Positions 8,452-64,000 of a stretch of 64,000 nucleotides of DNA are shown one piece after another. The position numbers and the translations under genes were made by a program. Under the pieces are notes generated by a model that worked only from the letters and a program-made list of their open reading frames with translations, searched no databases and was not told the DNA's origin. Numbering within the stretch: the first letter of the stretch is position 1; each line of letters begins with the position of its first letter. Source of the DNA: Odiellus spinosus (lineage: Eukaryota > Arthropoda > Arachnida > Opiliones > Phalangiidae); the NCBI GenBank assembly GCA_963920705.1, contig CAWUCO010000226.1:33151-97150 (forward strand), given 5' to 3'.

Positions 8452-9003
8452 TCAGTAGAATTTCTCTTCGAGTCCTGGCAAAAGAGATATATCGTATGAT
8501 TCAAAGAACTTCATCAAAGCCGTTTTACGTTTCAAAAAGTTGATATTGAAATCTCCAATAACAACTGTTGGGACAGATGAATCATATTTAGCATCAAACA
8601 ATGGGTTAAAATCTTCAAAAACTGTTCTCAAACTCGCACCGGGTGATTTGTACAACAATACTACACCTACGAGTTCATTTTTAATAGAAACGTCTAGCCA
8701 ACAACGTTCTACATGAGAATTTTTGAATGGCCTGTCTTTTAGTAAAACTCTGTTATCTACGGCCTTAACAATATTTTCCACTTCATTTTTCAAATAAATC
8801 GATGAGCCAAAAGCAACTCTTCGTGCTGTACTCGGTAAGTAAATACCCCCTACTTCCCTGTACGATGGCACATCAAAATTATCTGTCTCTTTTTTCCAAG
8901 TTTCAACGAAACCTAATAATTGACTCGTTAATATAACGTTGTCGTCTAGAATATCTTCCAAGTGAGCGTTTAAGGATTGAACATTACTAACATAAATGAA
9001 CAC
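8452..9003 (-). pseudogene. Helentron C-terminal AP-type endonuclease, truncated
   Basis: Apurinic-endonuclease-like domain of the type found at the C-terminus of Helentrons and in CR1-type LINEs. Visible motifs: NVQSLNAHL near the start, GFVETW, the YKSPGAS segment, and IGDFNIN (near 8545), which includes the conserved GDFN. The expected C-terminal SDH motif is missing because the frame stops after LPGLEEKFY. It is out of frame with the helicase; the switch is at a run of seven A/T bases at about 9007-9013, a typical slippage site. Confidence 0.85.
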
Positions 9004-10674
9004 CGGTTTTTTTCAAGAATGGAAGCTCAATACTTTTTGTGTTTCGCAATCTTTTGAGTTCCAATTCTACAACGTTGCTTTTAGGGGTATTTGGAACTTG
9101 AAATTTGCCATCAATATACAAACCAGAAGCTGACCTTGCTCTACTGCATGCAACATACAAGGAAGCCCTTTCTAGTTTCTTTGATGCTTTAAAAGGAACC
9201 ACCACCGAAAAGTACGTATCTCCCTGGCTTTTATGTATAGTAAGAGCTTCGGAAATTACCAAAGGAAATTGTTTCCTGGACACTGTAACATTGTTATGCC
9301 TCCATTTTCTCGCAAATGTTTTGGTTACCTTTTCAACGTGCGTCCAAGACGGACTAAAGTTATTTAGCCTATACAACCCGTAACTTCGTTGCCTCAAATT
9401 TTTCCCAACACTTTGGTCATCAAATGCGATCCAAACTCTTGACGGAAATTGATTTCCGTTTCTATTAGTACCGTATTCTATTTTACGTAACCAACCAGTC
9501 ACCCCATTCGTTAGTCCGTCTGCTGTGTCAACATTATTAGTCATCATATATATAATGCCACACGCCAGTTTCAATTCTCTTGGAAGACCATAAGTATCGG
9601 AAGTTTCTAGCTTTTGAACTTGCGCTAAAATATCACTCTTAACTTTGGTACTTAAGTCTCCATTTACAAAATCTTTTGATTCTGAAAGAGTCTTTTCAGT
9701 TTCTATCCTCGCAAGGTTCTCTGAATTAAACTGGTTCACCTCAGCATTAGTGGCGAAACGATGAATAGCATCTTATGGAGGTTTACGGTCCGAATTTATT
9801 TCCAAACTAGTGAAAAGGTCTATATTCTTTTGTGTCATCTTACCAATTGCCATGTTATTTAACGCTTCCGCAAATATTTTATTATCTTTTTGTCTCATTA
9901 TTTCGTCTAGTTCCGAAAACTGGGTTTCCAATCAACGAGACAAAAGGATTTTCAGCTTTACTTGGTGGCTGAAAAACGAAATAATCACGTACTGGCCTAA
10001 GTTGATTAAAATGGCCAACGAGCTAAACGGACAATCCGCCAAAATACTTCGGGAAACTCATAATTTCTTGCAATCTCTCATTAACTCTATTAAATATTTT
10101 TGCCCCTACCCTGGAAATTTCATCAATAATTAGCAGTTTTAATTGACCGTAGTAGTCTAGATTTGTGTAGAGTTTCACTCTCCAGCCTGGAAATATTTCC
10201 AGCAAACTGACTAACAGGTAAACTAAATGTACTATGCAAAGTAGCTCCACCTATATTGAAAGCCGCTTTACCCGTTGGTGCACATCGTATAACTTTCGCT
10301 TCTGAAGGATTAGACCCAGGTTGTTTGTTGTAAAATCTAGAAACTGCCTTGTAAATAGCACTAATCAATAGGCTTTTTCCAACACCGGCTCCCCCGGTAA
10401 CAAAAAGACGTAAAGGTGTTTCTCGAATTTTTAAATGAAACAAAACATGATAGAAAATCTCTCTTTGTTTCGAATTCAACTTTCTAACAATATCTTTGTA
10501 TTCTGAATCATCAACCAAAGTAACTGACGGCGAAATCGTTTTATCAGGATTTCCATTAATAAGCTCTCTATTGATATTTCCTACAGCGTCTTGCGAACTA
10601 TTAACTAGAAATTCTGTACCTTCGGTAGCAACCGATACATCTAATTCATTTTGATTTTCAAATTCAGGTTGCAT
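8987..10674 (-). pseudogene. Helentron PIF1-family helicase, broken
   Basis: 5'-3' DNA helicase that unwinds the transposon strand. Visible motifs: Walker A VTGGAGVGKSLL (near 10390), a motif-Ia type APTGKAAFNIGG, Walker B LLIIDEISRVGA (near 10110), a QLRPV motif near 10000, and the C-terminal SEALTIHKSQGDT and LYVACSRA motifs (near 9230 and 9150). The frame changes between about 10170 and 10200, a stop interrupts it near 10023, the frame changes again before 9930, and a further stop lies near 9775; the last part is open from 9739 to 8987. The order of motifs is complete, so this was once a full-length domain. Confidence 0.88.
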
Positions 10675-10770
10675 ATTAGTAAGATCTGATTCTATGGCTT
10701 CGTTCTCAAAATCGTTAATGGCCTGTTCAAGCGAGATTTCATCAATTTCATCGGTAAATTCTTTTCTGAC

Positions 10771-12704
10771 TTATTTAATATTTTCTAAACAAACTTCATA
10801 CTCTGTTTTAAAATCCTGATCTAAGATGTCTTGGGTTTCATCGCGCCATGGCGTAAACAACATTATTTGTGCTCTATAAAAATTTTCTGGATCTTTTTGC
10901 AAATTAAACCTTCGATATCTTACTATTTTAGAGTGGCCACTTTTTCGAACGAACCCGGAAGAATCCTTAAGTTTTAGCCAATTACCATACGATTCAACCT
11001 CAATGTTTTCTACGTCATCATCATTGGGTTGGGGATTAGGGACTGCTCTTCGACTTTTGGCAAACTCATACCAAGCAGCGAACTGAGCTAAAGTTGTCAT
11101 CTCCAACTCATCAGGTCTATGGACATAATGATCTAAAATCCCATTGGAAAAGACATTGTCACTGTCTTCTGGCAACTCTTGAAGTTCCACTTGGCTTTTA
11201 AGAATGTGTACACGTTTTTCGGGCAAATTTGTATTAATGAACGTACACGCTCTACTACACCTTATCACAGGAATTTGCAAACAAGAATAAGCCGCCTCCT
11301 GCGCACTTATCTCGTGTGAATTTAAAAATTTATTCGCTATAACTTTCAATTTCTCTTTAACTGTACATTTGTCTTTATTCGCTTGCTTTGCGGCTGTACG
11401 CAAGAGGTCCGACATGCCTCTTAGCGATTTTCCAATATAAGATACAATGTACATAACGCAAGCGTAGGGATCGAGAACATACTGAATATCCATATTTGCA
11501 TGCCAAAGTCCCAAAATTTCCTTATTATAAAGATTAACCCTAGTATCTTTAGGATTTCTTTTCAATAGAACTGTTTTTCTTTTAATATCGTGAGTTATAG
11601 CAGAAATATACTCTTCTTCAGTCATGTTTAATTTCGCTAACAATTCCTCAAATGTATTAACCCAAAGTTCCTTTTCCTTAGTTTGCAAAGTATCGTACAA
11701 ACGTTTACTATTTTATATGCATTTCTTTTCTACCTCCGCCGTTCCAACCACCCTTTTCTTTGGATCGTATATTAGCGTACAGGGCATGGGTGGAAAAGGA
11801 ATTCCAAAGCGGCAAACTGAACTATTATTAACCTTTTTTTTACACGTTGTCGTGGGTCTATGAAACTGTAGCCGTGTCAATAAATTTAAGTTTTCATCAT
11901 CATGCTCACCAGCGCATGCAATAATTTCATCGACAAACTTTTCTACTTCTTTGACATTAGAAAAGTCGTCCTTCAATTTTGGAGCCCCTTTTATCCATAT
12001 AAGTCCATGCTGGTGAGGAGAGCCCCTTTGCTGTATTTCTACTCTAAAGTAGTATTCTTCTACTATACCTAGGGGGCCTAATTTCTGCAGAGCTTTAAAA
12101 GCTCGGAAACGGTAGTCAAAATAACGAGCGCAAGTAACTGGGTCATCCTGAATAAGCTTTGCTTTTTCGGCGTAACTTAAACTTAAAACCTCTTGGTTTT
12201 CTAGAACTTCTTGCCCAGAAGTAGAGCGCAATACGTTTAAAAGCTCGGGCCATTTACTTTCCGCAGCTGAAAGCGTCACAAAAAGAGTAGCTGTCCCAAG
12301 TTGTCTTAGCATCACCAGCATCTCTTTTAGCCTGTGTTGCCAATAAGACGGAGAAGATTGTAGTCTTTCGAGAACTCTAAAACCATCATCATGCTTTATA
12401 AGCGTATCAATAGCCCCCTCAGAGGCGAGATACCCGGCCGTGAAATTCAACCCCTCTTTTTTTACTTTTTCTCATACACACTTGTATAGATTGACTAATT
12501 TTGTTCGTTTCTAATTTAACCAAAGAATAAAACAACTTCGAAGGATTCTTCGCACATCGGCATTTCGAAGTTCCCACTTCTCGATATTCCCATAGCTACT
12601 TTTGACATTGAGTTCTTTTTTTCACCCACATAAATACTCGGGAAAGACAATTCCTCCGAATCCTCGTCAAACAACAATGACATTGGTTTTTGCCCTTGGT
12701 TTCG
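10771..12704 (-). pseudogene. Helentron Rep domain (HUH nuclease), broken
   Basis: Rolling-circle replication initiator domain that nicks and joins DNA during transposition. The metal-binding HUH motif is visible as QQRGSPHQHGLIWIKGAP (near 12030). The catalytic tyrosine region is visible as MYIVSYIGKSLRGMS (near 11430), with the usual two tyrosines four residues apart. The two long frames 12450-11713 and 11700-10771 are in the same register, separated by an in-frame stop near 11713; another stop at 10771 separates Rep from the helicase. The conserved N-terminal fragment starting at an ATG at 12683 is in a different frame, so a frameshift lies between 12683 and 12450. Confidence 0.85.
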
Positions 12705-22058: not shown

Positions 22059-22059
22059 T

Positions 22060-30111: not shown

Positions 30112-30183
30112 TGGAGATACCGGGGTTCGAACCCGGAGCTTCCCGCATGCGAAGCGGTCGCAATAACACTGAGCTATGCCCCC
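30112..30183 (-). tRNA. tRNA-Ala (CGC)-like, D-stem altered
   Basis: D-stem 3' strand reads TTGC; otherwise recognisable. Confidence 0.55.
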
Positions 30184-30267
30184 AACGTCACATTTCTGAG
30201 CTTTAATCCCGGATATGTTATTCTCAAAACGAATAGTCTTCGATACTTAAAAGTTAAGCTCTTAATA

Positions 30268-30339
30268 TGGAGGTACCGGGGATCGAACCCGGGGCTTCCC
30301 GCATGCGAAGCGGGCGCTCTACCACTGAGCTACGCACCC
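30268..30339 (-). tRNA. tRNA-Ala (CGC)
   Basis: Good D, anticodon and T arms; acceptor 5' strand GGGTGCG as in the unit at 29954. Confidence 0.65.
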
Positions 30340-30425
30340 ACACCCCTCCGTCCCATATCCTTAATCCCGGGTATGTGCTGCTCAAAACGTATAGTCTTCG
30401 ATCCTCAAATATTAAGCTTTTAATC

Positions 30426-30497
30426 TGGAGATGGCGGGGTTCGAACCCGGGGCTTCCCGCATGCAAAGCGGGCGCTCTACCACTGAGCTATACCCCC
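30426..30497 (-). tRNA. tRNA-Ala (TGC), well preserved
   Basis: 72 bp; anticodon TGC; acceptor GGGGGTA against CATCTCC; other arms canonical. Confidence 0.78.
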
Positions 30498-30583
30498 ACC
30501 TCCGTTCGTCTCTGAGCTTTAATCCCGGATATGTTCTTCTCAAAACGAATAGTCTTCGATCCTCAAAAATTAAGAGTTTAATC

Positions 30584-30654
30584 TGGAGATACCGGGGTTC
30601 GAACCCGGGATTTCCGCATGCGAAGCGGGCGCTCTAACACCGCGCTATACCCCC
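30584..30654 (-). tRNA. tRNA-Ala (CGC)-like
   Basis: Box A region altered (GCGCGG) and one base lost in the variable region. Confidence 0.5.
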
Positions 30655-30742
30655 CAATGTCATTATATTTCTGAGCTTTAATCCCGGATATGTTTTTCTC
30701 AAAACGAATAGTCTTCGATCCTAAAAAGTAAAGCTCTTAATC

Positions 30743-30814
30743 TGGAGTTACCGGGGTTCGAACCCGGGGCTTACAGCATGCGAAGCGGGTGCTCTACCAC
30801 TAAGCTTTACCCCA
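30743..30814 (-). tRNA. tRNA-Ala (CGC)-like
   Basis: Base 8 is A, the D-stem has a T, and the anticodon stem 3' strand reads GCTGT. Confidence 0.5.
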
Positions 30815-30901
30815 CACGTCACTATATTACAGAGCTTTAATCCCGGATATTTTATTCTCAAAACGAATGGTCTTCGATCCCCAAAAGCTAAGCTCTTAAT
30901 C

Positions 30902-30973
30902 TGGAGATCCTGGGGTTCATACCCGGGGCTTCCCGCATGCGAAGCGGGCGCACTACCACGGAGCTATACCCAC
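30902..30973 (-). tRNA. tRNA-Ala (CGC)-like
   Basis: T-loop reads TATGAAC and the D-stem has mismatches; anticodon arm intact. Confidence 0.5.
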
Positions 30974-31059
30974 CACATCTATTTGTTTCTGAGCTTTAAT
31001 CCCGGATATGTTCTTCTCAAAACGAATAGTCTTCGATCCTCAAAATTGAAGTTTTCATC

Positions 31060-31131
31060 TGGAGACACCGGGGTTCGAACCCGGGGCTTCCCGCATGCGA
31101 AGCGGGCGCTCTACCACTGAGCTATACCCCC
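31060..31131 (-). tRNA. tRNA-Ala (CGC), consensus unit
   Basis: 72 bp. Every stem pairs, T-loop TTCGAAC, discriminator A; this is the best candidate for a working gene in the array. Confidence 0.88.
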
Positions 31132-31218
31132 CACATCCCTTCGTTTCTGAGCTTTAATCCCGGATATGATATTCTCAAAACATATAGTCTTCGATCCTTA
31201 AAAGGTAAGCTCTTAATC

Positions 31219-31290
31219 CGGAGATACCGGGGTTCGAACCTGGGGCTTCCCGCATGCGAAGCGGACGCTCTACCACTGAGCTATACCCCC
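31219..31290 (-). tRNA. tRNA-Ala (CGC)
   Basis: 72 bp with good stems; discriminator G instead of A. First unit in the minus-strand direction. Confidence 0.72.
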
Positions 31291-31315
31291 ACGTCACAAC
31301 ATTTCTGAGCTTTAA

Positions 31316-37458: not shown

Positions 37459-37718
37459 ATAAATTTCACTGGAAACAAGTTTCCGCGTGAATTAAAAAAC
37501 AGATAAAAACATTTCAGATAATTGAAAGGGTAAGTGAACCGTATTTATCATATATATTATCTGTAAATCTCTATAATTATGAAGTTTTAACTGCAGGTTA
37601 GCACTAAGACAGAATTTAGAAGCACTACAATGTTTGGTTTTTATTACCTAAATTTTTTTCATTTTTGTATCTAATTATTGATCTTGTAACTTTACCATCT
37701 ATAAGTGTTTAGTGAATA

Positions 37719-46368: not shown

Positions 46369-49353
46369 CAGTGGCGGCGATCGCTATAAATATGCCTGGG
46401 GGCCCGAGCCTCGAGGCTCCGAGCAAAATTTCTTTTTATTACAATGTAAATAGAATAAATCAGGAAACTATATTTTACTACTCTTTTTTATACATATTTT
46501 GGTCAACAGTCAACTTTGAACGATCAAGAGACAAGTTTGTAAAAAGTGCTCTTCCTGACATCTGATACATCTATAAATTCGTTGACAACTGCATCTAAGT
46601 CAATTTTTTCTGCCAATTCTCGGTGTAAGTGTATCATCGCCAGGCCATTTAATCTTTCTTGGGACGTTGTGTTGCGAAGATAGGTTTTGATTCGTTTAAG
46701 ACCACTAAAAGACCTTTCGCAAGTGGCAGATGTTACGGGAATTGTTAACAATATTCTTAATAATTTTGTTAGCTCAGGCAACATTTCTTTTAAAGGACTT
46801 TTTCGTTTCAAAAATGTTATGGCATCTCCTATGCATTTTATTCCAGCGTTTGCTGAAGCTACTGCGTCAAGAAACATGTTCGGTGTAGAAGCAACCGAGT
46901 TTTGTCAAAATCACATCCATAAAAGTTGGAGACTATTACAACTGTGGTATCTTTATCGCCAATCACAAATTTTTCCATATTTTCCATCACCTTAGATTGC
47001 CTTCTGTAAGCATCTTTTGCTGTAAAAAATTTAGCTGGATCACTACCCTGATCATAGCGCTTTGGCATTCTCCTTGTTCGAGAAGGATTTTCCGGAATTC
47101 TAAAAAAAAGTATTAACGTAAATAACAAAGCTGTTTCCAAAGATGTTTAATTGACAGTCTAAATACTTTATATTGAGGCGGTTCGCGGTACTGCAAGCGC
47201 TGATCCACAATTCATCAAAACCATTTTGTCGTTTCTCCTTCAACATACCTTGAATGTGATTTATCTTGCTATGAGCGTCTTGGTAGTTCAAATTAATCTT
47301 TTGTAGTTCGGCATTTAAAATTTCAACGCGTTCGAAAACAGTAATCATTGTTTTTAAATAGAATAAAAAGTCAAATTTTTCAATATATTTCAAAAACCCC
47401 GATGCTTTGTAGCCAGCCTCTCTTGTGTCATTTTTCGAAGTCACATCAAGAAATTCCTGCAAAGTGGCAAAGTTTTCCTCCACAATTTTCAAAGATGCAA
47501 CGCGAACACACCACCTTGTTGGACAAAATGATCGCAAGTTGCTCTGTTTGTTAGTAGGCAAAGAGCCATCATTGTTTACTTGAAGTTTTTGAAAGACGGC
47601 ATTCTTTTTGGCGGATGATTTTACAAAAGTGATTAGTTCTTTAGCAATGTTAATAAAATTTCGGACATCCGTAATTTTCTCCATTGTATCTTGTACAACT
47701 AGATTTAGATTATGGGCACTGCAATGTACGTACAAAGCTCGGTGTTCCACTTCGGTAACTCTTGCTCGAAGGGCGGAAAGGTGTCCACTAACATTACTCG
47801 CCCCGTCGTAACATTGTCCACGACAATTACTTATGTCCAATCCCATTCTTAACAGAACATCATTCAGTATCGAATGCAATGTAGCAGCAGTTGTTGACGA
47901 AGTTTCGTAAAATCCCACGAAGTGTTCATTTATTTTGAAGTTTTCAGCGACAATACGAAAACAAAATGAAACCTGCTCTTTTCTTGATATGTCAGTAGTG
48001 TCGTCAATCATAACAGTGTAGTATTTCGCTTTTTTAATTCTCCCAATAATATTTTTGATAATGCATTTTGAGAGAAGTGATAATATTTCGTCAACAACCT
48101 CATGAGAAAGCCACTTGGTTTTTCTGCTTAACCAATTTCTGGAACATCTTCAGAGGCAGAGCGTAACTTCAACAACTGATACAAGTTCGAAGTCTCGTCT
48201 GTATGTCCTCGAAGAGCGAGACCTTGTTTTGACAAGTACAAGAGTGATGAAAATATTTTCATAAGCGCTTTTCTAGAATCTTTCATTTCTTTTAGATTCG
48301 CCGACGACAAGAAGACTGATACGTTGACTGATTTTTTGTTTGCTGACAAAGCACTTGTAGCAGCAATATGAAGACTGCTTTTTTCGTGTCCTATAAATCG
48401 TTCCAAAGCCTTTTTCCAATTTGAAATCCGTCCTCTACAAACGCTTTTAAAGTATTCTTTTCACAAGGCAATATAGTTCCAACTATGGTCTAATTCTGCA
48501 CAGCTGATTTACAAAGATTACAAAATACTTTGTCATTGTCTTTCTTATAATCTATCCATGGAAAAGCATTTTTCCAATGCGACTGGAACTTTCTTCCTTG
48601 TGGAAATTTTTCTGCTTTTATAGGTTCTGAAGTTTTATTTGAACGCTTATTTTCTTCGCCTTGACTAGCACTGACGGCTTTGGAACAACCTTCCCCAATA
48701 GTAGAATTAATATTCGTAATAATATCCAGACCTTCGTCTTCGCTTATTTTCCTCTTTGGTCTAGATCTGCAACCACTTTCTTACCATTTCTGTAGGTACT
48801 TATCCATTTTGTAGTGTTTTGGTGTTCCTTTCAAATCAGAAGTTTAGAACGACAAGAAATTATGAAAATTAGACCAGTAACTGACGAGTAACCGTCTGCC
48901 TAAGCTAACTCGGCAAATTTTTCTCGAAATAATTCCTACAAAAATCCCACGTGGTGACGTTTTCCTGTATGTAGTGTTGTGATTTGACTATTTTGTGTTT
49001 AAGAGCGTGAGAACTCCGAAATGGATAACGAAAATTCTCAAGGCGAATGAGACGAGCTTTCACCTTGAGTCAGACTTATTTCCGTCAGCTTTCTCATCGT
49101 TTAGAAGGAAAGTTTTAGCGTTAGGTCTATTTCGCTTATTATCAAGCCCTTTGACCCCTTTCCAATCGTTTAAGGACTTTTCCTCGTGATTTTTTTAACC
49201 TTAACTCCTATAGACTCGCGACCGAAGAAGAAAATAAGGATAGGGGCTTCGTTAATTTTCCCTGGGGGATATGCCCCACCCCACCCCCCCCCCCCCTTTA
49301 TTTTCCGCCTGGGGGCTCTGGTCCCACAGCCCCCCCCAGGATCGCCGCCACTG
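46369..49353. mobile_element. hAT DNA transposon with 8 bp target duplication
   Basis: Ends CAGTGGCGGCGATC and its near-perfect inverse GATCGCCGCCACTG, flanked on both sides by the identical 8 bp GTTGGGTT (46361-46368 and 49354-49361). An 8 bp duplication is the hallmark of hAT transposition. A broken transposase lies on the minus strand inside. Confidence 0.95.
46524..48807 (-). pseudogene. hAT transposase (ZMYM1-like), frameshifted
   Basis: Begins at an ATG at 48807 (MDKYLQKW, followed at once by a stop or an unrecognised splice). It carries a TTF-type zinc-finger region HWKNAFPWIDYKKDNDKVFC followed by NLCKSAVQ (about 48480-48560). The catalytic domain runs through frames 48406-48128 and 48011-47100 and includes MIDDTTDISRKEQVSF and GQCYDGASNVSG. 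The last part, 46877-46524, has the dimerisation motif TCERSFSGLKRIKTYLRNTT. Frame changes lie near 48480-48410, 48130, 47110 (at a T/A run) and 46880. The set of domains is complete, so it decayed after insertion. Confidence 0.88.
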
Positions 49354-50917: not shown

Positions 50918-51291
50918 AGCCCTTGGACCGAAAATATTAAATTGTATATTACAACGTATTTATTAACGAACAAGTTGGGAAACCAAAATATAACCTCCCC
51001 GACCCCTACGTTAAGGTAACTTAACCTTACCTTAAATAAAAGATGAAAAGAAATGTAGAGTATTGGAAGAGTAAAAGAAACAGCGTGCACTTGAATCGCC
51101 CTTCTCTATTTCCCATCTCGGTTACGAAGTATAAGTATTTTCCTTTAACCTCAAGGATTCAGAGAATGCAAAAGAGTTTCCTGCGTTACCCATAATTATA
51201 TGCGGCAGGTCGTAGACTTTTTAATATACACACCAAATGAAATGTTTATTTTCAAAGTAAATATGTATAATACCAGTTCTTGTAATATAAA

Positions 51292-51927
51292 TTAACACTT
51301 GAGCATAGGCTGTACTGTGTGATTATCTTTAATAATCCACTGATTTGATAAAGACGAAGGATTTAGTCTGGGATGGCAAGGAAGACAAGGAACTAATACG
51401 ACGAAGACATGGTAGCAAGTTCCTCTTGGACAAACCAAGATATATTCTAGACTGAATGTTCCATTTACAACCCATTGTCGGTAGATGATTGGCAATTACT
51501 TCCGGTACAGTTTTCGTCTGATATTCTTGTTTTGACGTGCTAATAGAGGACCATTACTGATATTTTCATCATACGAGAGATCCCAGTCATTGTAAGAGTC
51601 CAAGGCTGGAGCTGGTCGAGAGGTTATTTTCCAAACCGGCTGACAAGACGTTAGTTTCCCCTCCTATGATAAAAAAAATATCTTAAAGACTGAAAGTAGA
51701 CTAATTTGCATACCGCTATTATTAATACTTGAATAGCTCCTTTTAAATTTAGAATAACGAGGTCGTATGAAGAACTGTCGAGCTTTTACCGACTGTAGGT
51801 GTTTCTTATGTCGAGTCCGAAAACACCCACTGCTTGCATGTTTCAATTCTTCGTTGCCAGGCCGTCTCTTTTTGGTGATAAATGAAAACCGTGTCGCTGC
51901 TCTGTTGACTTCAAACGGTGATGACAT
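51292..51927 (-). pseudogene. Shared unidentified frame, copy F (best preserved)
   Basis: One minus-strand register of 212 codons with only two internal stops, near 51664 and 51497. It begins MSSPFEVNRAATRFSFITKK, continues with a basic region (CFRTRHKKHLQSVKARQFF), then after the first stop KLTSCQPVWKITSRPAPALD and LARQNKNIRRKLYRK. After the second stop comes LPIIYRQWVVNGTFSLEYIL with a hydrophobic stretch CYHVFVVLVPCLPC that could span a membrane, ending QPMLKC. The second stop is at the same codon in copies B and D, so it may mark a true end or a missed intron. Family not recognised. Confidence 0.55.
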
Positions 51928-52280
51928 TCTGCGCTGGTTGATTTTCTCACTTAAGTCATTATAGCTCTCTTTCGTCTCGTCCTGTCTCCTGGTCTGCTAA
52001 CGAAGTTCACTGTACATGGCTGCTTTCGATTATGAAAACAATCGGAAATGTTTCTTGGTTGTATAGAGGAGAAAACTTACGCCTATTTTTTTTCCAACAT
52101 AAGATGTCCCTTTTATTCAAAATTGTTGTTTTTTATACACGGGAAACCTACTGTACTTCAATCCACCCCAAGTTTGCAGCAAGCCTTAGCCTATACCTTT
52201 GCTTTTGGGACTATATGACATATGGAAAACAGCTTAGCGTGTGCTGCCAACTCAAACTGGTATTAAAGGGCTGAAAAGGG

Positions 52281-52539
52281 CTACACGAGTAGAAGAACCC
52301 AGTGAATGTAATTTTCAATTATCGATATAAAATATCATTAAAAATAGCTTATCTACTGTTTAATAAATTAAATTTTTGTTCATCAATTTAGAACCACTTA
52401 ATAAAGCTCGTTAGGTTTATGTTTTAACCTTTTTGTAACCCATTCAGCCACCTTTCTCTCTATTACTTCATATACCTTATCAGTCTTTCATTATTGAAAT
52501 CTTTGTTTAACCAAGAGAAGCTTATCACAGGGATAAGGA
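52281..52539. other. Unannotated AT-rich spacer
   Basis: No structure recognised. Confidence 0.35.
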
Positions 52540-54450
52540 GATGATTTCATGGCGCGTATACATTGACATGGGAAATGATTCTTGGTTTTCTTTTCGGCGG
52601 AGTATTGAGAGAATCAGCTTTATGTACTATTACCTTCTAGCGAAGTTGGAAACATGTATTTTGACTTGGTTATAAAAACAAGTTTCTAGCACGCCCCTTC
52701 AATTGGCCCTATTCCAATTCAGCACCACCTCGGCCGACCTTTTGAAAATTGACGGATCGTGTAAAGCACAACTTTTTTTATCATGTATTAAGCCGATTCA
52801 ATTCCCTCCTCTCAAATAATATTTAATAGAAAACATTTTTGGTCGATGCGGGGGAAATTAGCGATTAGCAGAAATATGATTTTAAATGGAAAAAATTCTG
52901 AGAATGGCGAAATCTGATTGGTGCCCGGTCTCGATGATTCCAATTTGGCTGCTCGGCCGAGATGGCGCTGAATATGAATAAGGCTAATCTCATTTTTTTC
53001 AATTTCTCGCGTGTTTGCGATACTGCCTAAAGCTGTATACGCTGAAACTTCGCAAATGAGTTCGATTTGCGAACTTTACGAATGTGTTTCGCGCGAAAAT
53101 GTCGCGTGTACGCAATGGTATAATTCATGAGAAACGCTGGATTTGCAGTAAATTCTTCATTAGTGTTTGCAATTTCTCGCGCAAAACGCCAAGACTTAAA
53201 GCGATTTCCTTGCCTCGATCTGTGCATTAGAATGCGTTGCAGTTGCTTAGTCTGATTGGATATGTCATAAATTTTATTTTGACGTTTAATTTCGACCAGT
53301 TCAAGGGGAATTGGTATATAAGATTTAAATCTTAGGCGGATTGATACAAAATGTTCAACCTCTTAAGAAAAAATTTTGTCGTGAAAACTCTCCATGAACA
53401 GAAGTACAGTAGGTTTCCCGTGTATTTGTGACACGCGTGAAATCGAGTTCGCTAGCACGCGAGTATGTGTAGCCTACTATATTTGAAGTCGGAAACCACT
53501 TTACGCACGCAAAATATCAAAGCTATTTTGATATTCTTGGGAATGGGAGAATCAGCTTTATGTGTGAGAAAATACTGTAATCTTCTGGCAGACTTGCGAA
53601 CAGTAGCGTAAGAATTGGTTTTAATGTAGACCAAGTGGGGAAATAATCACGTGATTGGATCTCTTAATGACTGATAGTTTTTGTTTCACACTTTTCCCCA
53701 CTTAACTTTAATGTTAATCCCAAGTAAGTATAGTAGAACCAGGTTTTTAATACCAACTGTCGTGAGTTTCCGGTAACGTTTAAACTAGTGCGAAGTCACG
53801 TAAAATTACGTTTGCTTCACCACTTGGTATATTTTTACTCAGGTTCGCCCTGTCTGAAAAAAATGATAAAAAATTGATTGTGGGGCCAAAAGAGAGACAT
53901 CCCTTCTTCACACACAGCATTATACCACAAATAAACGTGTTTTAGAAGTGGGCTTATATATCTAAAATTTACTCTACAGCTTTCTAGGGTATCTGTAGAC
54001 TGAGTAGCACCAGAAAGCGAAATTGTACGTCACAGTCCTTAGTTTAGCGTGGTATGCGTTAATTGCTTATTGAATATAATTACTTAGAAATTTGGCTCGT
54101 TGGTTTTAAATAAGTTTGAATCGTTTGAATACAATTTATTGGTAAGGTAGTAATTTTGAATTTGAATTTTTTGTTTGATGCGTTTATTATTTGTTTGAAA
54201 TATTGTTATATTTTCATTGACTTCAGTTCCAATTTTATTTTTATTACGGAGTTGTGGCTGAAATATTTGTTTGAAAATCAAGAGGTTTTTCTGATTCGTT
54301 TTTCTCTGTAGTTATTTTTTGTTGTCGTAAAAGAGTTATTTTACGATTTACCGATTGATTTTCTGATATATTTTGGTTACCGTCTTATCGAATTTTATTT
54401 TTACTTCGAAGATCGAAGTATTTCCTTTTTTTTGAATTATTTAGTTTTTT

Positions 54451-54580
54451 TGGTGTGTGTGTTAAGAGTTATTTAACACAATCCTGAGATTGCTACGTTG
54501 AATTTATTCGATTGATTTAGGTTATTTATTATTAAGTTGGTGTGCATTATTTACTTTGAAAATATAAATATTTAAAAAAA
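54451..54580. other. AT-rich leader before the 21-residue-repeat frame
   Basis: Possible 5' untranslated region. No promoter motif can be claimed. Confidence 0.3.
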
Positions 54581-55369
54581 ATGGAAAGAGACGAAGGTAT
54601 TAGTAGAGAGGAACTGAAAAAGCGTAAAGCTAAGGAGAAAATGAGAGAGAAAGAAGGAAAGTTTTAGCGGCCCAAAGGAAAGGCAGTATGTCAACGAATG
54701 TGGTTAATACTCATGGTACTTATATACCAGGTAGTTCGTCTGAAGTGATCTTATCACGCAATATTGCTAGGGAGAATAATTTTTAAGTAGTGTCATCTGC
54801 CAATGTTATTAAAAGCCATTCTGGAGTGGTAGGAATAGGGGTAATAGAAGGTTTAAGAAATTCTCAAACGGATGGAAATCAACCTTCTACCTATGAGCGA
54901 AGGGCTAACGACACTGCAGATCCGCTAGAGCAAATGTCGAAAAAATTAAGCTGGATAGTAAAAATTTTGAAGAGAAAGAGCGTATTCGGAATAACTTAGC
55001 GAAGGCAGCTTCGCGACAAAACGTAGATTATAGAGAAGAAGAACGTTCAAAAAATCAGTTGGCGATGGTTGAAAGACCCCAAGAGGTAGGATATAGAGAA
55101 GCTGAACGAGCTAAAAATCAGATTTCGAAGGGTGATAGACGCCAAGAGGTAGAATATAGAAGCTGAACGTTCTAAAAATCAGTTGGCGATGGTTGATAGA
55201 CGCCAAGAGGTAGGATATAGAGAAGCTGAACGAGCTAAAAATCAGATTTCGAAGGGTAATGGACGCCAAGAGGTAGAATATAGAGAAGCTGAACATTCTA
55301 AAAATCAGTTGGAAATGGTTGATAGACGCCAAGAGGTAGAATATAGAGAAGCTGAACGTTCTAAAAATC
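54581..55369 (+). pseudogene. Coding remnant with 21-residue repeats, source of the satellite
   Basis: From ATG at 54581 the peptide reads MERDEGISREELKKRKAKEK and then shifts frame at about 54660 to continue VLAAQRKGSMSTNVVNTHGT. A stop falls near 54785 and another shift near 54955. The frame then enters FEEKERIRNNLAKAASRQN and the first repeats, DYREEERSKNQLAMVERPQE and relatives. The repeat period is 63 bp, exactly 21 codons or three heptads, rich in Glu, Arg and Lys, so the protein was probably helical or coiled-coil. At this left edge the repeats still read GATAGACGCC in frame, without the extra base found in later units. The Penelope-like element cuts it at 55370. Family not recognised; arginine/glutamate-rich repeats of similar length occur at the N-terminus of some Helitron proteins, but that link is only a guess. 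Confidence 0.55.
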
Positions 55370-57568
55370 ATATTTATTTAATTTATTTGCCATGGTATTG
55401 AAAAATGAATAATTTATTTTACGAAAGACAGTTACTTCATGGACATTTGACAAAAATTTACATTGGTCGGTAGCTTTCGGGCCGTGGCCCATCTTCAGCC
55501 GAGACTAAAATAGTTCTAAAGCTAACAGTTTTTAGGAAAATAAAATAAATACAAAACACCCCCTAACCCCCATCTCTCGACTCCCGTAACGCAGTCGGAA
55601 AGGCGGCCCAGCCCCTCACGCTAACCGTGCCTTTGTCAAGGGTCAACCCCCCTAACTTTGCAATATAGATGGCCTCGAGAAAATTCCTTTTAAACCAGTT
55701 TGTCTCTTCACAAATAACTTTCGCGGAGTTCCAATCGATCGTATGACCCGGTTCATTCAGCACGTGTAAAGCCAGGCCGTTATTTTCATCATGGTGCGCA
55801 AATTTGGTGACATGTTCCGCGCGCCGTTTTTGAAGAGTTCGTTTGCTTTGGCCAATATACATTTCGGGACAATCCGCGCATTTAATTGAATATACTATTC
55901 CCGTTTTCTGTAGTTCCTCTACTTTTGATTTATTACAGATTAATGCGCGTTTAAGAGTGTAATTAGTCTTATTGACTGTAGAAACATTATACCTTTTCAA
56001 TTGTCGTTTTGTTTTCTCACTAATGCCTTTAACTTAGGGGAGGGAAATTAGATTATCAGGTTTATCTTTAAGTATAATGTTTTGAACAATATGGTCCTTA
56101 AGAACAGATAAAACCAAGCCTTTAGGATAACCACTTGCAACAAACTGATCCGCAAATACTTCCTTATCCTTATCTGGTTGATCCAATAGAGTTTCAATGC
56201 GGTTTTTCATAGATTTTAAAATCCCTACCTTAATATTGTGGGGGTGGTCTGAGCTAAAATTTAAAAACCTTTTCGCGTGGGTGGGTTTCTGATACATGGA
56301 GCAATGAAAAGAATCATGTTTTCGCGCAACCATTACATCCAGAAAAGTTAATTTACCGTTATTTTCACCCTCAAAGGTAAATTGGATATCTTTTTGAAAA
56401 CCGTTAACCAAATCCAAAAGGGCACACTCTGAGAATGACTTTTTTTTAATTAAAAAAATATCGTCCATAAAACGTCGCCAGAGTTTTACATTTGGTTTTA
56501 TTTGAATATTTTTTAATATCCGTAATTCTAAATGTTCCATGACCAAATTTGCTATAGGGGCAGATAACGGATTACCCATAGCTAAGCCTTTTTCTTGACG
56601 ATAGAGTTTCTCCTCAAAACTAAAATATGTATTCTCCAGGCAAATCTCGCTAAGGGCAATAATTGTAGAAATGCTAAGATCAGTTCGCTGTTTTAGAGTC
56701 CCATCTTTCTTAAGTTTTATTGTCAAAATTCTTAGGGCTAATTCGACTGGAACACTACCATACAAGTTGACAACATCCAAGCTACAAGTCTCAAAGTCTT
56801 GTTCCAAGGGAACTCGTTTAATATCATTAACAAACTGAACCGAGTTCTGCAAGGAAAATTCAGATTGTCCCACCAAAGGGGCAATAATTCGCACCAATTG
56901 TTTAGCGCAACTATACGTGGGGCTGTTAATTGAAGAAACAATAGGTCTAATTGGGTTTCCTTGTATATGAATTTTGACCAACCCATAAACGTGGGGAACC
57001 TTTAAAACCGGTAGGTAAAATCTAAATTTATGTTGCTTGTCAATTTCCTTAGATTTAATGGCTTTGTTGATAACGCTATGAAGTTTGCGATCTATGCAAG
57101 CTGTTGGGTCCTTACTAATTTGTGTGTAATTGTTATTATTGAAAAAATCCAACATTTTCTGGGTATAATCTGTTGCGTCGATAACAACGATTTTCCCACC
57201 CTTATCCGCCTGAACTATTTTTATTGATTTATCGCGCTTAATTAGTTTTAATGCACTCTCTTCTAATTTAGAGAGATTAGTGCCTTGCGTAGTTTTAGAA
57301 AAGATATTTTTAATCAAAAACCGAATATCCTGCTTGGTATTCTCTTCCAAATCCAAGCCCCGTAATTGACGTTCGGTGTCCGCGCACACATTTAAAATAT
57401 TTACTTTAGAGTTTTGTATTCCAAAAGACAAACCTTTACTGAGGACTTCCGGGACGTTTGGGTTCCTCATTCAATTTTTTCAACTGACCAATGTAAATTT
57501 TAGTTTTCATTAAACTATTACAAGTCAAATGTCCATGAAGTAACTGTCTTTCGTAAAATAAATTATTC
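55370..57568 (-). mobile_element. Penelope-like element inserted in the satellite
   Basis: The element interrupts a 63 bp repeat. The 12 bp TTCTAAAAATCA is present at both junctions (about 55358-55369 and 57569-57580). About 45 bp near each end form an inverted pair (GACAGTTACTTCATGGACAT near 55428 and its inverse near 57522), as in Penelope-like elements, whose repeats are often inverted. The coding region is on the minus strand: reverse transcriptase, then a GIY-YIG endonuclease. Confidence 0.9.
55563..57470 (-). pseudogene. Penelope-like reverse transcriptase plus GIY-YIG nuclease
   Basis: One register holds both domains, split by a single stop at about 56034. The reverse transcriptase part (57470-56034, 478 codons) shows LKVPHVYGLVKIH, the palm segment CSLDVVNLYGSVP with the first catalytic Asp, EKGLAMGNPLSAPIANLVME, and RFMDDIFLIKKK with the catalytic DD pair. 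The second part (56000-55563) is a GIY-YIG endonuclease with GIVYSIKCADCPEMYIGQSK, including the Cys pair common in Penelope proteins, and KRRAEH. RT followed by GIY-YIG is the defining order of Penelope-like elements. The N-terminal part is shorter than usual for the family. With only one stop, the copy is young. Confidence 0.92.
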
Positions 57569-59018
57569 CTTCTAAAAATCAGTTGGCGATGGTTGATAGA
57601 TGCCAATAAGTAGGATATAGAGAAGCTGAACGAGCTAAAAATCAGATTTCGAAGGGTGATAGACGCCAAGAGGTAGAATATAGAGAAGCTGAACGTTCTA
57701 AAAATCAGTTGGAGGCGGTTGATAGACGCCAAGAGGTAGGATATAGACAAGCTGAACGTTCTAAAAATCAGTTGGCGATGGTTGATAGACGCCAAGAGGT
57801 AGAATATTGAGAAGCTGAACGTTCTAAAAATCAGTTGGCGATGGTTGATAGACGCCAAGAGGTAGGATATAGAGAAGCTGAACGAGCTAAAAATCAGATT
57901 TCGAAGGGTGATAAGACGCCAAGAGGTAGAATATAGAGAAGCTAAACGTTCTAAAAATCAGTTGGCGATGGTTGATAGACGCCAAGAGGTAGGATATAGA
58001 GAAGCTGAACGTTCTAAAAATCAGTTGGCGATGGTTGATAGACGCCAAGAGGTAGGGTATAGAGAAGCTGAACGTTCTAAAAATCAGTTGGAGATGGTTG
58101 ATAGACGCCAAGAGGTAGGATATAGACAAGCTGAACGTTCTAAAAATCAGTTGGAGATGGTTGATAGACGCCAAGAGGTAGGATATAGACAAGCTGAACG
58201 AGCTAAAAATCAGATTTCGAAGGGTGATAAGACGCCAAGAGGTAGAATATAGAGAAGCTGAACGTTCTAAAAATCAGTTGGAGATGGTTGATAGACGCCA
58301 AGAGGTAGGATATAGACAAGCTGAACGTTCTAAAAATCAGTTGGCGATGGTTGATAGACGCCAAGAAGTAGGATATAGAGAAGCTGAACGTTCTAAAAAT
58401 CAGTTGGAGATGGTTGATAGACGCCAAGAGGTAGGATATAGACAAGCTGAACGTTCTAAAAATCAGTTGGCGATGGTTGATAGACGCCAAGAGGTAGGAT
58501 ATAGAGAAGCTGAACGTTCTAAAAATCAGTTGGAGATGGTTGATAGACGCCAAGAGGTAGGATATAGACAAGCTGAACGTTCTAAAAATCAGTTGGCGAT
58601 GGTTGATAGACGCCAAGAGGTAGGATATAGAGAAGCTGAACGAGCTAAAAATCAGATTTCGAAGGGTGATAAGACGCCAAGAGGTAGAATATAGAGAAGC
58701 TGAACGTTCTAAAAATCAGTTGGAGATGGTTGATAGACGCCAAGAGGTAGGATATAGACAAGCTGAACGTTCTAAAAATCAGTTGGCGATGGTTGATAGA
58801 CGCCAAGAGGTAGGATATAGAGAAGCTGAACGAGCTAAAAATCAGATTTCGAAGGGTGATAAGACGCCAAGAGGTAGAATATAGAGAAGCTGAACGTTCT
58901 AAAAATCAGTTGGCGATGGTTGATAGACGCCAAGAGGTAGGATATAGAGAAGCTGAACGTTCTAAAAATCAGTTGGCGATGGTTGATAGACGCCAAGAGG
59001 TAGGATATAGAGAAGCTG

Positions 59019-62000
59019 AACGAGCTAAAAATCAGATTTCGAAAGGTAATAAGACGCCAAGAGGTAGAATATAGAGAAGCTGAACGTTCTAAAAATCAGT
59101 TGGCGATGGTTGATAGACGCCAAGAGGTAGGATATAGAGAAGCTGAACGTTCTAAAAATCAGTTGGCGATGGTTGATAGACGCCAAGAGGTAGGATATAG
59201 AGAAGCTGAACGAGCTAAAAATCAGATTTCGAAGGGTGATAAGACGCCAAGAGGTAGAATATAGAGAAGCTGAACGTTCTAAAAATCAGTTGGAGATGGT
59301 TGATAGACGCCAAGAGGTAGGATATAGACAAGCTGAACGTTCTAAAAATCAGTTGGCGATGGTTGATAGACGCCAAGAGGTAGGATATAGAGAAGCTGAT
59401 CGAGCTAAAAATCAGATTGCGAAGGGTGATAAGACGCCAAGAGGTAGAATATAGAGAAGCTGAACGTTCTAAAAATCAGTTGGCGATGGTTGATAGACGC
59501 CAAGAGGTAGGATGTAGAGAAGCTGAACGTTCTAAAAATCAGTTGGCGATATTTGATAGACGCCAAGAGGTAGGATATAGAGAAGCTGAACGAGCTAAAA
59601 ATCAGATTTCGAAGGGTGATAAGACGCCAAGAGGTAGAATATAGAGAAGCTGAACGTTCTAAAAATCAGTTGGAGATGGTTGATAGACGCCAAGAGGTAG
59701 GAAATAGAGAAGCTGAACGTTCTAAAAATCAGTTGGAGATGGTTGATAGACGCCAAGAAGTAGGATATAGAGAAGCTGAACGTTCTAAAAATCAGTTGGA
59801 GATGGTTGATAGACGCCAAGAGGTAGGATATAGACAAGCTGAACGTTCTAAAAATCAGTTGGCGATGGTTGATAGACGCCAAGAGGTAGGATATAGAGAA
59901 GCTGAACGTTCTAAAAATCAGTTGGAGATGGTTGATAGACGCCAAGAGGTAGGATATAGACAAGCTGAACGTTCTAAAAATCAGTTGGCGATGGTTGATA
60001 GACGCCAAGAGGTAGGATATAGAGAAGCTGAACGAGCTAAAAATCAGATTTCGAAGGGTGATAAGACGCCAAGAGGTAGAATATAGAGAAGCTGAACGTT
60101 CTAAAAATCAGTTGGAGATGGTTGATAGACGCCAAGAGGTAGGATATAGACAAGCTGAACGTTCTAAAAATCAGTTGGCGATGGTTGATAGACGCCAAGA
60201 GGTAGGATATAGAGAAGCTGAACGAGCTAAAAATCAGATTTCGAAGGGTGATAAGACGCCAAGAGGTAGAATATAGAGAAGCTGAACGTTCTAAAAATCA
60301 GTTGGCGATGGTTGATAGACGCCAAGAGGTAGGATATAGAGAAGCTGAACGTTCTAAAAATCAGTTGGCGATGGTTGATAGACGCCAAGAGGTAGGATAT
60401 AGAGAAGCTGAACGAGCTAAAAATCAGATTTCGAAGGGTGATAAGACGCCAAGAGGTAGAATATAGAGAAGCTGAACGTTCTAAAAATCAGTTGGAGATG
60501 GTTGATAGACGCCAAGAGGTAGGATATAGACAAGCTGAACGAGCTAAAAATCAGATTTCGAAGGGTGATAAGACGCCAAGAGGTAGAATATAGAGAAGCT
60601 GAACGTTCTAAAAATCAGTTGGAGATGGTTGATAGACGCCAAGAGGTAGGATATAGAGAAGCTGAACGTTCTAAAAATCAGTTGGAGATGGTTGATAGAC
60701 GCCAAGAGGTAGGATATAGACAAGCTGAACGTTCTAAAAAGCAGTTGTCGATGGTTGATAGACGCCAAGAGGTAGGATATAGAGAAGCTGAACGAGCTAA
60801 AAATCAGATTTCGAAAGGTAATAAGACGCCAAGAGGTAGAATATAGAGAAGCTGAACGTTCTAAAAATCAGTTGGCGATGGTTGATAGACGCCAAGAGGT
60901 AGGATATAGAGAAGCTGAACGTTCTAAAAATCAGTTGGCGATGGTTGATAGACGCCAAGAGGTAGGATATAGAGAAGCTGAACGAGCTAAAAATCAGATT
61001 TCGAAGGGTGATAAGACGCCAAGAGGTAGAATATAGAGAAGCTGAACGTTCTAAAAATCAGTTGGAGATGGTTGATAGACGCCAAGAGGTAGGATATAGA
61101 CAAGCTGAACGTTCTAAAAATCAGTTGGCGATGGTTGATAGACGCCAAGAGGTAGGATATAGAGAAGCTGATCGAGCTAAAAATCAGATTGCGAAGGGTG
61201 ATAAGACGCCAAGAGGTAGAATATAGAGAAGCTGAACGTTCTAAAAATCAGTTGGCGATGGTTGATAGACGCCAAGAGGTAGGATGTAGAGAAGCTGAAC
61301 GTTCTAAAAATCAGTTGGCGATATTTGATAGACGCCAAGAGGTAGGATATAGAGAAGCTGAACGAGCTAAAAATCAGATTTCGAAGGGTGATAAGACGCC
61401 AAGAGGTAGAATATAGAGAAGCTGAACGTTCTAAAAATCAGTTGGAGATGGTTGATAGACGCCAAGAGGTAGGAAATAGAGAAGCTGAACGTTCTAAAAA
61501 TCAGTTGGAGATGGTTGATAGACGCCAAGAAGTAGGATATAGAGAAGCTGAACGTTCTAAAAATCAGTTGGAGATGGTTGATAGACGCCAAGAGGTAGGA
61601 TATAGACAAGCTGAACGTTCTAAAAATCAGTTGGCGATGGTTGATAGACGCCAAGAGGTAGGATATAGAGAAGCTGAACGTTCTAAAAATCAGTTGGAGA
61701 TGGTTGATAGACGCCAAGAGGTAGGATATAGACAAGCTGAACGTTCTAAAAATCAGTTGGCGATGGTTGATAGACGCCAAGAGGTAGGATATAGAGAAGC
61801 TGAACGAGCTAAAAATCAGATTTCGAAGGGTGATAAGACGCCAAGAGGTAGAATATAGAGAAGCTGAACGTTCTAAAAATCAGTTGGAGATGGTTGATAG
61901 ACGCCAAGAGGTAGGATATAGACAAGCTGAACGTTCTAAAAATCAGTTGGCGATGGTTGATAGACGCCAAGAGGTAGGATATAGAGAAGCTGAACGAGCT

Positions 62001-62562
62001 AAAAATCAGATTTCGAAGGGTGATAAGACGCCAAGAGGTAGAATATAGAGAAGCTGAACGTTCTAAAAATCAGTTGGCGATGGTTGATAGACGCCAAGAG
62101 GTAGGATATAGAGAAGCTGAACGTTCTAAAAATCAGTTGGCGATGGTTGATAGACGCCAAGAGGTAGGATATAGAGAAGCTGAACGAGCTAAAAATCAGA
62201 TTTCGAAGGGTGATAAGACGCCAAGAGGTAGAATATAGAGAAGCTGAACGTTCTAAAAATCAGTTGGAGATGGTTGATAGACGCCAAGAGGTAGGATATA
62301 GACAAGCTGAACGAGCTAAAAATCAGATTTCGAAGGGTGATAAGACGCCAAGAGGTAGAATATAGAGAAGCTGAACGTTCTAAAAATCAGTTGGAGATGG
62401 TTGATAGACGCCAAGAGGTAGGATATAGAGAAGCTGAACGTTCTAAAAATCAGTTGGAGATGGTTGATAGACGCCAAGAGGTAGGATATAGACAAGCTGA
62501 ACGTTCTAAAAAGCAGTTGTCGATGGTTGATAGACGCCAAGAGGTAGGATATAGAGAAGCTG
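59019..62562. repeat. 1,772 bp segment duplicated in tandem within the satellite
   Basis: Private variants recur with a constant offset of 1,772 bp: GAAAGGTAATAAG at 59041 and 60813, GGATGTAG at about 59512 and 61284, GGAAATAG at about 59699 and 61471, AAGCAGTTGTCG at about 60739 and 62511. The first copy is about 59019-60790 and the second about 60791-62562. Confidence 0.9.
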
Positions 62563-62715
62563 AACGTTCTAAAAATCAGTTGGAGATGGTTGATAGACGC
62601 CAAGAGGTAGGATATAGACAAGCTGAACGTTCTAAAAATCAGTTGGCGATGGTTGATAGACGCCAAGAGGTAGGATATAGAGAAGCTGAACGAGCTAAAA
62701 ATCAGATTTCGAAGG

Positions 62716-64000
62716 GTGATAAGACGCCAAGAGGTAGAATATAGAGAAGCTGAACGTTCTAAAAATCAGTTGGAGATGGTTGATAGACGCCAAGAGGTAG
62801 GATATAGACAAGCTGAACGTTCTAAAAATCAGTTGGCGATGGTTGATAGACGCCAAGAGGTAGGATATAGAGAAGCTGATCGAGCTAAAAATCAGATTTC
62901 GAAGGGTGATAAGACGCCAAGAGGTAGAATATAGAGAAGCTGAACGTTCTAAAAATCAGTTGGCGATGGTTGATAGACGCCAAGAGGTAGGATGTAGAGA
63001 AGCTGAACGTTCTAAAAATCAGTTGGCGATATTTGATAGACGCCAAGAGGTAGGATATAGAGAAGATGAACGAGCTAAAAATCAGATTTCGAAGGGTGAT
63101 AAGACGCCAAGAGGTAGAATATAGAGAAGCTGAACGTTCTAAAAATCAGTTGGAGATGGTTGATAGACGCCAAGAGGTAGGATATAAAGAAGCTGAACGT
63201 TCTAAAAATCAGTTGGCGATGGTTGATAGACGCCAAGAGGTAGGATATAGAGAAGCTGAACGAGCTAAAAATCAGATTTCGAAGGGTGATAAGACGCCAA
63301 GAGGTAGAATATAGAGAAGCTGAACGTTCTAAAAATCAGTTGGCGATGGTTGATAGACGCCAAGAGGTAGGATATAGAGAAGCTGAACGTTCTAAAAATC
63401 AGTTGGCGATGGTTGATAGACGCCAAGAGGTAGGATATAGAGAAGCTGAACGTTCTAAAAATCAGTTGGCGATGGTTGATAGACGCGAAGAGGTAGGATA
63501 TAGAGAAGCTGAACGAGCTAAAAATCAGATTTCGAAGGGTGATAAGACGCCAAGAGGTAGAATATAGGGAAGCTGAACGTTCTAAAAATCAGTTGGAGAT
63601 GGTTGATAGACGCCAAGAGGTAGGATATAGACAAGCTGAACGTTCTAAAAATCAGTTGGCGATGGTTGATAGACGCCAAGAGGTAGGATATAGAGAAGCT
63701 GATCGAGCTAAAAATCAGATTTCGAAGGGTGATAAGACGCCAAGAGGTAGAATATAGAGAAGCTGAACGTTCTAAAAATCAGTTGGCGATGGTTGATAGA
63801 CGCCAAGAGGTAGGATGTAGAGAAGCTGAACGTTCTAAAAATCAGTTGGCGATATTTGATAGACGCCAAGAGGTAGGATATAGAGAAGATGAACGAGCTA
63901 AAAATCAGATTTCGAAGGGTGATAAGACGCCAAGAGGTAGAATATAGAGAAGCTGAACGTTCTAAAAATCAGTTGGAGATGGTTGATAGACGCCAAGAGG
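62716..64000. repeat. 823 bp tandem duplication at the right of the satellite
   Basis: Units starting at 62716 and 62906 (with GATGTAG, GATATTTGATAG and GAAGATGAACG variants) recur at 63539 and 63729, an offset of 823 bp. The second copy is cut by the window end. Confidence 0.85.

What the first reader, a model, noticed from the sequence alone, without database searches (positions are those of the whole stretch)
54581..64000. A satellite that grew out of a protein-coding 21-residue repeat
The base unit is 63 bp, exactly 21 codons (three heptads). At the left edge it is continuous with a recognisable coding start at 54581 and still in frame. In the amplified part almost every higher-order unit contains one added A that shifts the frame into a stop, so coding was lost and the DNA kept expanding. 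That gives a direct view of a coding minisatellite becoming a non-coding satellite of more than 6.7 kb, open at the window end.
Basis: partly seen in the sequence, partly recalled or inferred. Interest (0 to 1): 0.75.

Follow-up and report, generated by a model that had tools for sequence, protein, structure and literature searches.

The report
Helitron protein repeat turned satellite-like DNA
A run of 21-amino-acid repeats inside the gene of a mobile DNA element (a Helitron) has, in dead copies of that element, grown into long non-coding tandem DNA arrays, while other copies in the same genome still carry the repeat short and readable.

Summary
The repeat is real and its coding origin is right, but the gene was not recognised: the 21-residue unit is an in-frame repeat in the N-terminal part of a Helitron Rep/helicase polyprotein. 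The same genome (443 Mb, unnamed) holds two copies open to their end (2,410 and 2,179 aa, about 23 and 12 units). The window copy is dead: its N part needs two frame changes and has a stop, one unit lacks 2 bp, a 2.2-kb probable Penelope-like element sits in the array, and 27 of 28 B-type units right of it carry an extra A. 'Still in frame' is wrong, and the A was probably not the first blow. The array runs to the contig end. Two near-identical copies of the locus show where it stops: after about 79 and 49 units it runs back into Helitron coding sequence; the longer holds a 31-unit block twice, as unequal exchange would give. Among loci read, arrays of 49 or more units occur only in broken copies, in at least two lineages, but the association is not significant (p = 0.24-0.27). 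A new variant of a known route, satellite birth from a transposon's internal repeat, here a coding one.

The parts
53295..54340 (+). 5' region of the Helitron copy, shared with another family copy in the window and with the 93-unit copy at C8:5.38M
   Evidence: 77-84% matches to 24188-26149; 53623-54058 matches at 87% upstream of the C8:5.38M copy
54581..55023 (+). Decayed N-terminal part of the Helitron polyprotein (open pieces 54581-54664, 54658-54783, 54787-54954, then 54957 on, in changing frames); about 44 bp shorter than in open copies
   Evidence: N region 456 bp here, 500 bp in open copies such as C17, C44 and C8c; 3 interruptions against 6.2 in shuffles, 10 of 400 as few
55024..55374 (+). 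Left remnant of the 63-bp array, 5.5 units, no extra A; third unit lacks 2 bp
55375..57569 (-). Inserted probable Penelope-like element: RT-like ORF 56034-57470 and GIY-YIG-like ORF 55563-56000; identical 45-bp inverted end repeats 55407-55451 and 57524-57568; the same 12 bases (TTCTAAAAATCA) at both junctions
   Evidence: same insert on C47 (98.7%) and C33 (99.8%)
57570..64000 (+). Right, amplified part of the array (101 parsed units), open at the contig end; 27 units are 64 bp (extra A), the first at 57863
58977..62566 (+). Two copies of a 28-unit block: exact 1,818-bp match at offset 1,772
8452..12450 (-). Another decayed Helitron copy in the window (Helitron_like_N, PIF1, UvrD_C_2 pieces); no match to the repeat peptide there

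Best explanation
The 63-bp array is the tandem-repeat segment of the N-terminal coding part of an autonomous-type Helitron (N part, 21-residue repeats, DUF6570, Rep, PIF1-type helicase). In copies open through the repeats, the number of repeats differs by whole 63-bp units, so the frame survives. The window copy lost its frame, apparently already in the common ancestor with its sister copy on C282, and its array grew in blocks of about 28 to 31 units, most simply by unequal exchange; changes that destroy coding (here an extra A in the B-type unit) were copied along with the blocks and homogenised. A probable Penelope-like element split the array before the three near-identical copies of the locus diverged. 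Shown: Helitron identity, open copies, broken window copy, block duplications, length differences between near-identical copies of the locus. Inferred: unequal exchange as the mechanism, the order of events, and that loss of coding released the growth.
For: Repeat at 35 places by my hand grouping's rows (a lower bound by the tool's own note); 23 of 35 read (window, 19, 3): N part in 22 of 23, post-repeat part in 21 of 23. C17 copy: one frame of 2,410 aa with about 22.7 units; Helitron_like_N 4.1e-27, DUF6570 3.3e-21, PIF1 1.5e-26. C8:5.97M copy (C8c): 2,179 aa, 11.7 units; dN/dS 0.14 over 1,757 post-repeat codons between these two. The seven copies open through N part and repeats have arrays of n x 63 + 42 bp between my anchors. 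Right edge of the array on C33: 391-aa ORF with DUF6570 4.8e-21. C47 against C33: closely similar unit order, with a 31-unit block twice in C47 that C33 has once (two units of it differ). Array lengths of about 79, 49 and at least 107 units (window, both parts) in three copies of the locus whose upstream flank differs at 19 of 4,093 aligned sites, 130 gap columns set aside. Tree of 19 rows: {C282 + window trio} 100/100, joined with C18b (8.7 units) 100/99; C8a (93 units) outside that clade, joined with C8c and C207 (11.7 and 13.7 units) at 87/78.
Against: Broken copies are not longer on the whole: open 8.7-22.7 units (7 copies), broken 6.7-92.6 (13 copies), Mann-Whitney p = 0.25 (0.27 after collapsing near-identical copies to 6 and 11); more than 30 units in 3 of 11 broken and 0 of 6 open, p = 0.24. 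So 'release by loss of coding' is consistent with the data, not proved. 'Open' there means open through N part and repeats, judged by hand: of those seven only C17 and C8c are open to the end; C44 stops at 1,533 aa, and C207, C274, C264 and C18b break within 74 to about 190 residues after the repeats. The C8a grouping has support under the usual bar. Array lengths rest on one assembly. Whether C223, C47 and C33 are alleles or recent duplicates is unsettled: C33 is colinear with the window at 35438-36938 (99.93%), but a C47 stretch 22 kb before its array region matched only family repeats, up to 97% over 219 bp. The loci were drawn by similarity to the window's array.
Confidence: 0.85

Rival explanations
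1. A host gene with a coding minisatellite decayed and its repeat expanded.
For: A coding-like start and a 21-codon unit.
Against: The same gene occurs in many copies and continues in one frame into Helitron Rep and PIF1 domains.
Confidence: 0.03
2. The array expands by the Helitron's own rolling-circle replication or slippage during transposition, and the long copies were inserted already long.
For: A review describes rolling-circle replication as a way to multiply internal Helitron sequences (PMC12628747, passages). Copies open through the repeats differ by whole units.
Against: C223, C47 and C33 share the near flanks and the same Penelope-like insert, yet differ in length by whole blocks, so much of the growth happened in place after insertion.
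Confidence: 0.15
3. The array length and block copies are assembly artefacts of a short minisatellite.
For: Contig C223 ends inside the array; an exact 1,818-bp match and an exact 1,977-bp match in C47 could be false joins.
Against: Three contigs give different but related long arrays; the C33 array (49 units) has no exact match longer than 280 bp; other loci have 58 and 93 units.
Confidence: 0.1
4. The extra A is a systematic base-calling error, so coding is not lost by it.
For: It sits in one sequence context.
Against: B units at 55087 and 57611, identical to the commonest extra-A unit but for that base, lack the A; 58 units of C282 and 93 of C8a have none.
Confidence: 0.03

Closest known systems
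Satellite-like arrays in Helentrons (HINE) of Crassostrea gigas (PMC7492417, passages incl. abstract) and DINE central repeats of Drosophila (table row in PMC9659126)
   Same: An element of the Helitron superfamily carries a tandem array that can be related to or grow into satellite DNA.
   Different: There the repeats are central arrays of non-autonomous elements; here the repeat is part of the protein-coding frame of a Rep/helicase-coding Helitron.
Ogre LTR-retrotransposon repeats giving nine Lathyrus satellites (PMC7004042, abstract and passages)
   Same: Short arrays inside a transposon expand into long ones.
   Different: The repeats lie in the 3' untranslated region, downstream of the coding region, and the element is a retrotransposon.
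Satellites that contain pieces of transposon ORFs: CR1 and LINE-1 ORF2, gag of a rye element, CACTA Jozin Tnp2 region (text and table rows of PMC9659126)
   Same: Satellite monomers derived from transposon coding sequence.
   Different: In the passages read these are ORF fragments turned into monomers; I saw no statement that an in-frame amino-acid repeat present in open copies was the seed.

Membership tests
Helitron | Rep domain in the same protein | tested here: met
   PF14214 4.1e-27 in copy C17. In the window copy this part lies beyond the contig end; the sibling C33 has DUF6570 right of the array
Helitron | PIF1-type helicase domain in the same protein | tested here: met
   PF05970 1.5e-26, same 2,410-aa frame of C17
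Helitron | Endonuclease domain at the C-terminal end (only some Helitron lineages; recalled) | tested here: inconclusive
   Exo_endo_phos_2 only 0.039, 14.3 bits against a cut-off of 27.4, in the window's other copy; no such hit at 0.01 in C17
Helitron | Characteristic ends (5' TC, 3' CTRR with hairpin, or Helentron-type ends; recalled) and insertion without target duplication | tested here: inconclusive
   Shared end regions of family copies printed, no Helitron end motif settled; insertion sites not tested
Satellite DNA | Long homogenised head-to-tail non-coding array | tested here: met
   101 units, 24 types, block copies, frame lost in 27 of 28 B units
Satellite DNA | Stand-alone arrays independent of the source element | tested here: not met
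   23 of 23 loci read have Helitron sequence on at least one side (in L058 only a weak 28-residue N match); 12 of 35 loci not read
Satellite DNA | Abundance and heterochromatic or centromeric place | not testable with these tools
   No cytogenetics or read depth; the tool's counts are lower bounds
Penelope-like element (the insert) | Reverse transcriptase followed by GIY-YIG endonuclease | tested here: inconclusive
   RVT_1 9.7e-5 (22.6 bits, cut-off 29.6) and GIY-YIG 8.1e-4 (20.1 bits, cut-off 22.6), in that order

The most novel reading that the evidence does not exclude
Reading frame acts as a brake on a minisatellite. While the Helitron codes, its 21-residue repeat changes only by whole units and stays below about 25; when a copy dies, the brake is off and the array grows by blocks and homogenises whatever broke it (an extra A in one lineage, stop codons in two others). 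This has happened at least twice in one genome, so satellite birth can be watched as a replicated natural experiment.
Probability: 0.35. Interest if true: 0.65.

Novelty: new variant of a known kind. Interest (0 to 1): 0.5.

Why it matters
That satellites grow from repeats inside transposons is known, in the papers seen here from non-coding repeats or from ORF fragments. Here open coding donors, broken copies and intermediate array lengths sit in one genome, and three near-identical versions of one locus show single block steps. That would let one test whether coding constraint limits array length and how fast arrays grow once it is gone.

Tried and rejected
Tried without result: Pfam on the window's N-terminal and repeat pieces (no match above a curated cut-off); PDB sequences (best E 0.41); IMG/VR with the repeat protein (8 pattern stretches, none confirmed) and with a 16-mer (three hits, L001-L003, not followed); phage records (no match). 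Coding could not be shown from the window alone: the unit-variation test is neutral. Even in the seven copies open through the repeats the units vary 50 non-synonymous: 20 synonymous: 0 stops over 99 units against 139:38:12 expected, so the repeat itself is at most weakly constrained apart from the absence of stops. Rejected: array as part of a host gene; extra A as first cause; a simple 'dead copies are longer' claim (p = 0.25). One search was meant to count breaks in the N and C parts of each copy, but in several rows, the window's among them, the best N match fell inside the array; I do not use it. Rows dropped from the length test: window (no right edge), C18a (no N part), L058 (no post-repeat part). 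The three-way flank count was spoiled by a 3.6-kb insertion in C33 and redone on two stretches. The genome-wide survey by the N-terminal part was not possible because the tool did not complete. Papers: searches listed no paper that, by title and the abstract start shown, is about a coding Helitron repeat becoming a satellite; that is a statement about these searches only. Passages were also seen of PMC5615363, PMC6947457, PMC12692304 and PMC8978399; no paper was read whole.
Full report
WHAT IS IN THE WINDOW. A 63-bp repeat fills 57570-64000; 101 units were parsed, of 24 types. A left remnant of 5.5 units lies at 55024-55374. Between them, 55375-57569 is a 2.2-kb insert on the minus strand with an RT-like ORF and a GIY-YIG-like ORF (both under Pfam's cut-offs), identical 45-bp inverted end repeats and the same 12 bases at both junctions; I call it a probable Penelope-like element. 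Right of it, 27 of 28 B-type units are 64 bp by an added A; 0 of the other 73 are. The two B units of the left remnant and the first one right of the insert lack the A.

THE FRAME. The piece 54581-55023 is more open than chance (3 interruptions against a mean of 6.2, 10 of 400 shuffles as few), but the unit itself says nothing: most shuffled units have some open frame (1,841 of 2,000), and unit variants are neutral in their make-up.

THE GENE. The genome search answered once. The window is C223:33151-97150 of an unnamed 443-Mb genome, and contig C223 ends where the window ends. By my hand grouping the repeat is found at 35 places (a lower bound); I read 23 (window, 19, 3). In 22 of 23 the same N-terminal part is present, and in 21 of 23 the same post-repeat part. 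In copy C17 one frame runs 2,410 aa from the first M through about 22.7 units, with DUF6570, Helitron_like_N (4.1e-27) and PIF1 (1.5e-26). A second copy (C8:5.97M, here C8c) is open for 2,179 aa with about 11.7 units and ends at the matching place; C44 is open for 1,533 aa. Four more (C207, C274, C264, C18b) are open through N part and repeats but break within 74 to about 190 residues after them. Between C17 and C8c dN/dS is 0.14 over 1,757 post-repeat codons and 0.77 over the 167-codon N part. So the repeat is part of the protein of a Helitron that was under purifying selection, and its number varies by whole units. An endonuclease-like end is suggested only weakly.

THE DEAD COPY AND ITS SIBLINGS. 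C47 and C33 carry the same locus with the same insert; over 4,093 aligned upstream sites (130 gap columns set aside) the window, C47 and C33 show 8, 6 and 5 private differences. C33 matches window 35438-36938 at 99.93% about 20 kb before its array, allowing for indels; the C47 stretch taken 22 kb before its array region matched the window only through family repeats. So whether the three are alleles or recent duplicates is open. Their arrays end after about 79 and 49 units (insert subtracted); on C33 the right edge runs into a 391-aa open frame with DUF6570, and C47 has a frame of the same length there. In unit order C47 has a 31-unit block twice that C33 has once (two of the 31 units differ), an exact 1,977-bp match within C47 at offset 1,960. 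The window has another block of 28 units twice, an exact 1,818-bp match at offset 1,772. These look like single steps of unequal exchange; the mechanism is inferred.

ORDER OF EVENTS. C282 is the sister of the three (trio 99/97, with C282 100/100). It shows the same split of the N-terminal probe, and its N region is shortened like theirs (454 and 456 bp against 500 in C17, C44 and C8c); it has 58 units, no extra A and stops in 11 units. The next relative, C18b, is open through about 8.7 units. So here the frame was probably lost before the A arose. A separate copy, C8a, has 93 units, stops in 43 of them and no extra A; it groups with C8c and C207, with 11.7 and 13.7 units, at 87/78 support, and lies outside the well-supported clade of C18b, C282 and the trio (100/99). 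The tree is midpoint-rooted. The A is thus one of several coding losses that were copied along.

WHAT IS NOT SHOWN. In 20 loci with both edges, copies open through the repeats have 8.7-22.7 units and broken ones 6.7-92.6; the difference is not significant (p = 0.25; 0.27 collapsed), nor is the excess of arrays over 30 units (3 of 11 against 0 of 6 groups, p = 0.24). The sample was drawn by similarity to the window's array, 12 of 35 loci were not read, and the wider survey could not be run. The organism was not identified.

AGAINST WHAT IS KNOWN. Helitron and Helentron internal repeats (PMC7492417, PMC12628747, passages), Ogre 3'UTR repeats (PMC7004042, abstract and passages) and pieces of transposon ORFs (PMC9659126, passages and table rows) are recognised sources of satellites. 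This case fits that route; the difference is that the seed is an in-frame amino-acid repeat still present in open copies. I found no paper on that in the searches named under Tried and rejected. From memory only, tandem repeats of about 21-23 residues occur in other Helitron N-terminal regions and in STPR proteins; this was not tested.

Noticed in passing
window 28144-31315: 158-bp tandem array of about 20 copies with tRNA-Ala-like genes on the minus strand (16 ARAGORN calls; 19 Rfam tRNA matches), anticodons CGC, AGC and TGC.
   Followed up: partly
window 14773-16444: Tandem array (periods 112-404, mostly 149 bp) with tRNA-Val/Thr-like copies (5 ARAGORN calls, 3 Rfam matches at gathering score).
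   Followed up: partly
window 18166-20521, 23301-27235, 35300-37464, 50961-54340: Dispersed family related to the Helitron flanks; by my reading 18166-20521 and 23301-27235 are inverted copies around a 14-bp array, and the copy at 50961-54340 looks like an inverted dimer.
   Followed up: partly
L050/L026 (C33:220114-223750) and L051/L025 (C47:176248-180193): C33 has an extra 3.6 kb just upstream of the coding start (window 54478-54481), and C47 an extra 3.9 kb at window 52769-52777; the few doubled bases look like target duplications.
   Followed up: no
window 21410-22062: 14-bp x 46 array with long plus-strand ORFs in several frames (249 aa from 21380).
   Followed up: no
window 32164-34530 (-): 788-aa ORF with reverse transcriptase domain (RVT_1 2.9e-28).
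   Followed up: no
window 46524-48011 (-): hAT transposon pieces (Dimer_Tnp_hAT 3e-15; DUF4371 6.3e-12).
   Followed up: no
L039 (C18:1452500-1459500) and L058 (C261:170000-172700): Related but diverged repeat types (units with YTEAERSRNQLAMADRRQ and YTEAERARNQSAMAFRRQ) of about 23 and 24 units, perhaps other Helitron subfamilies.
   Followed up: partly
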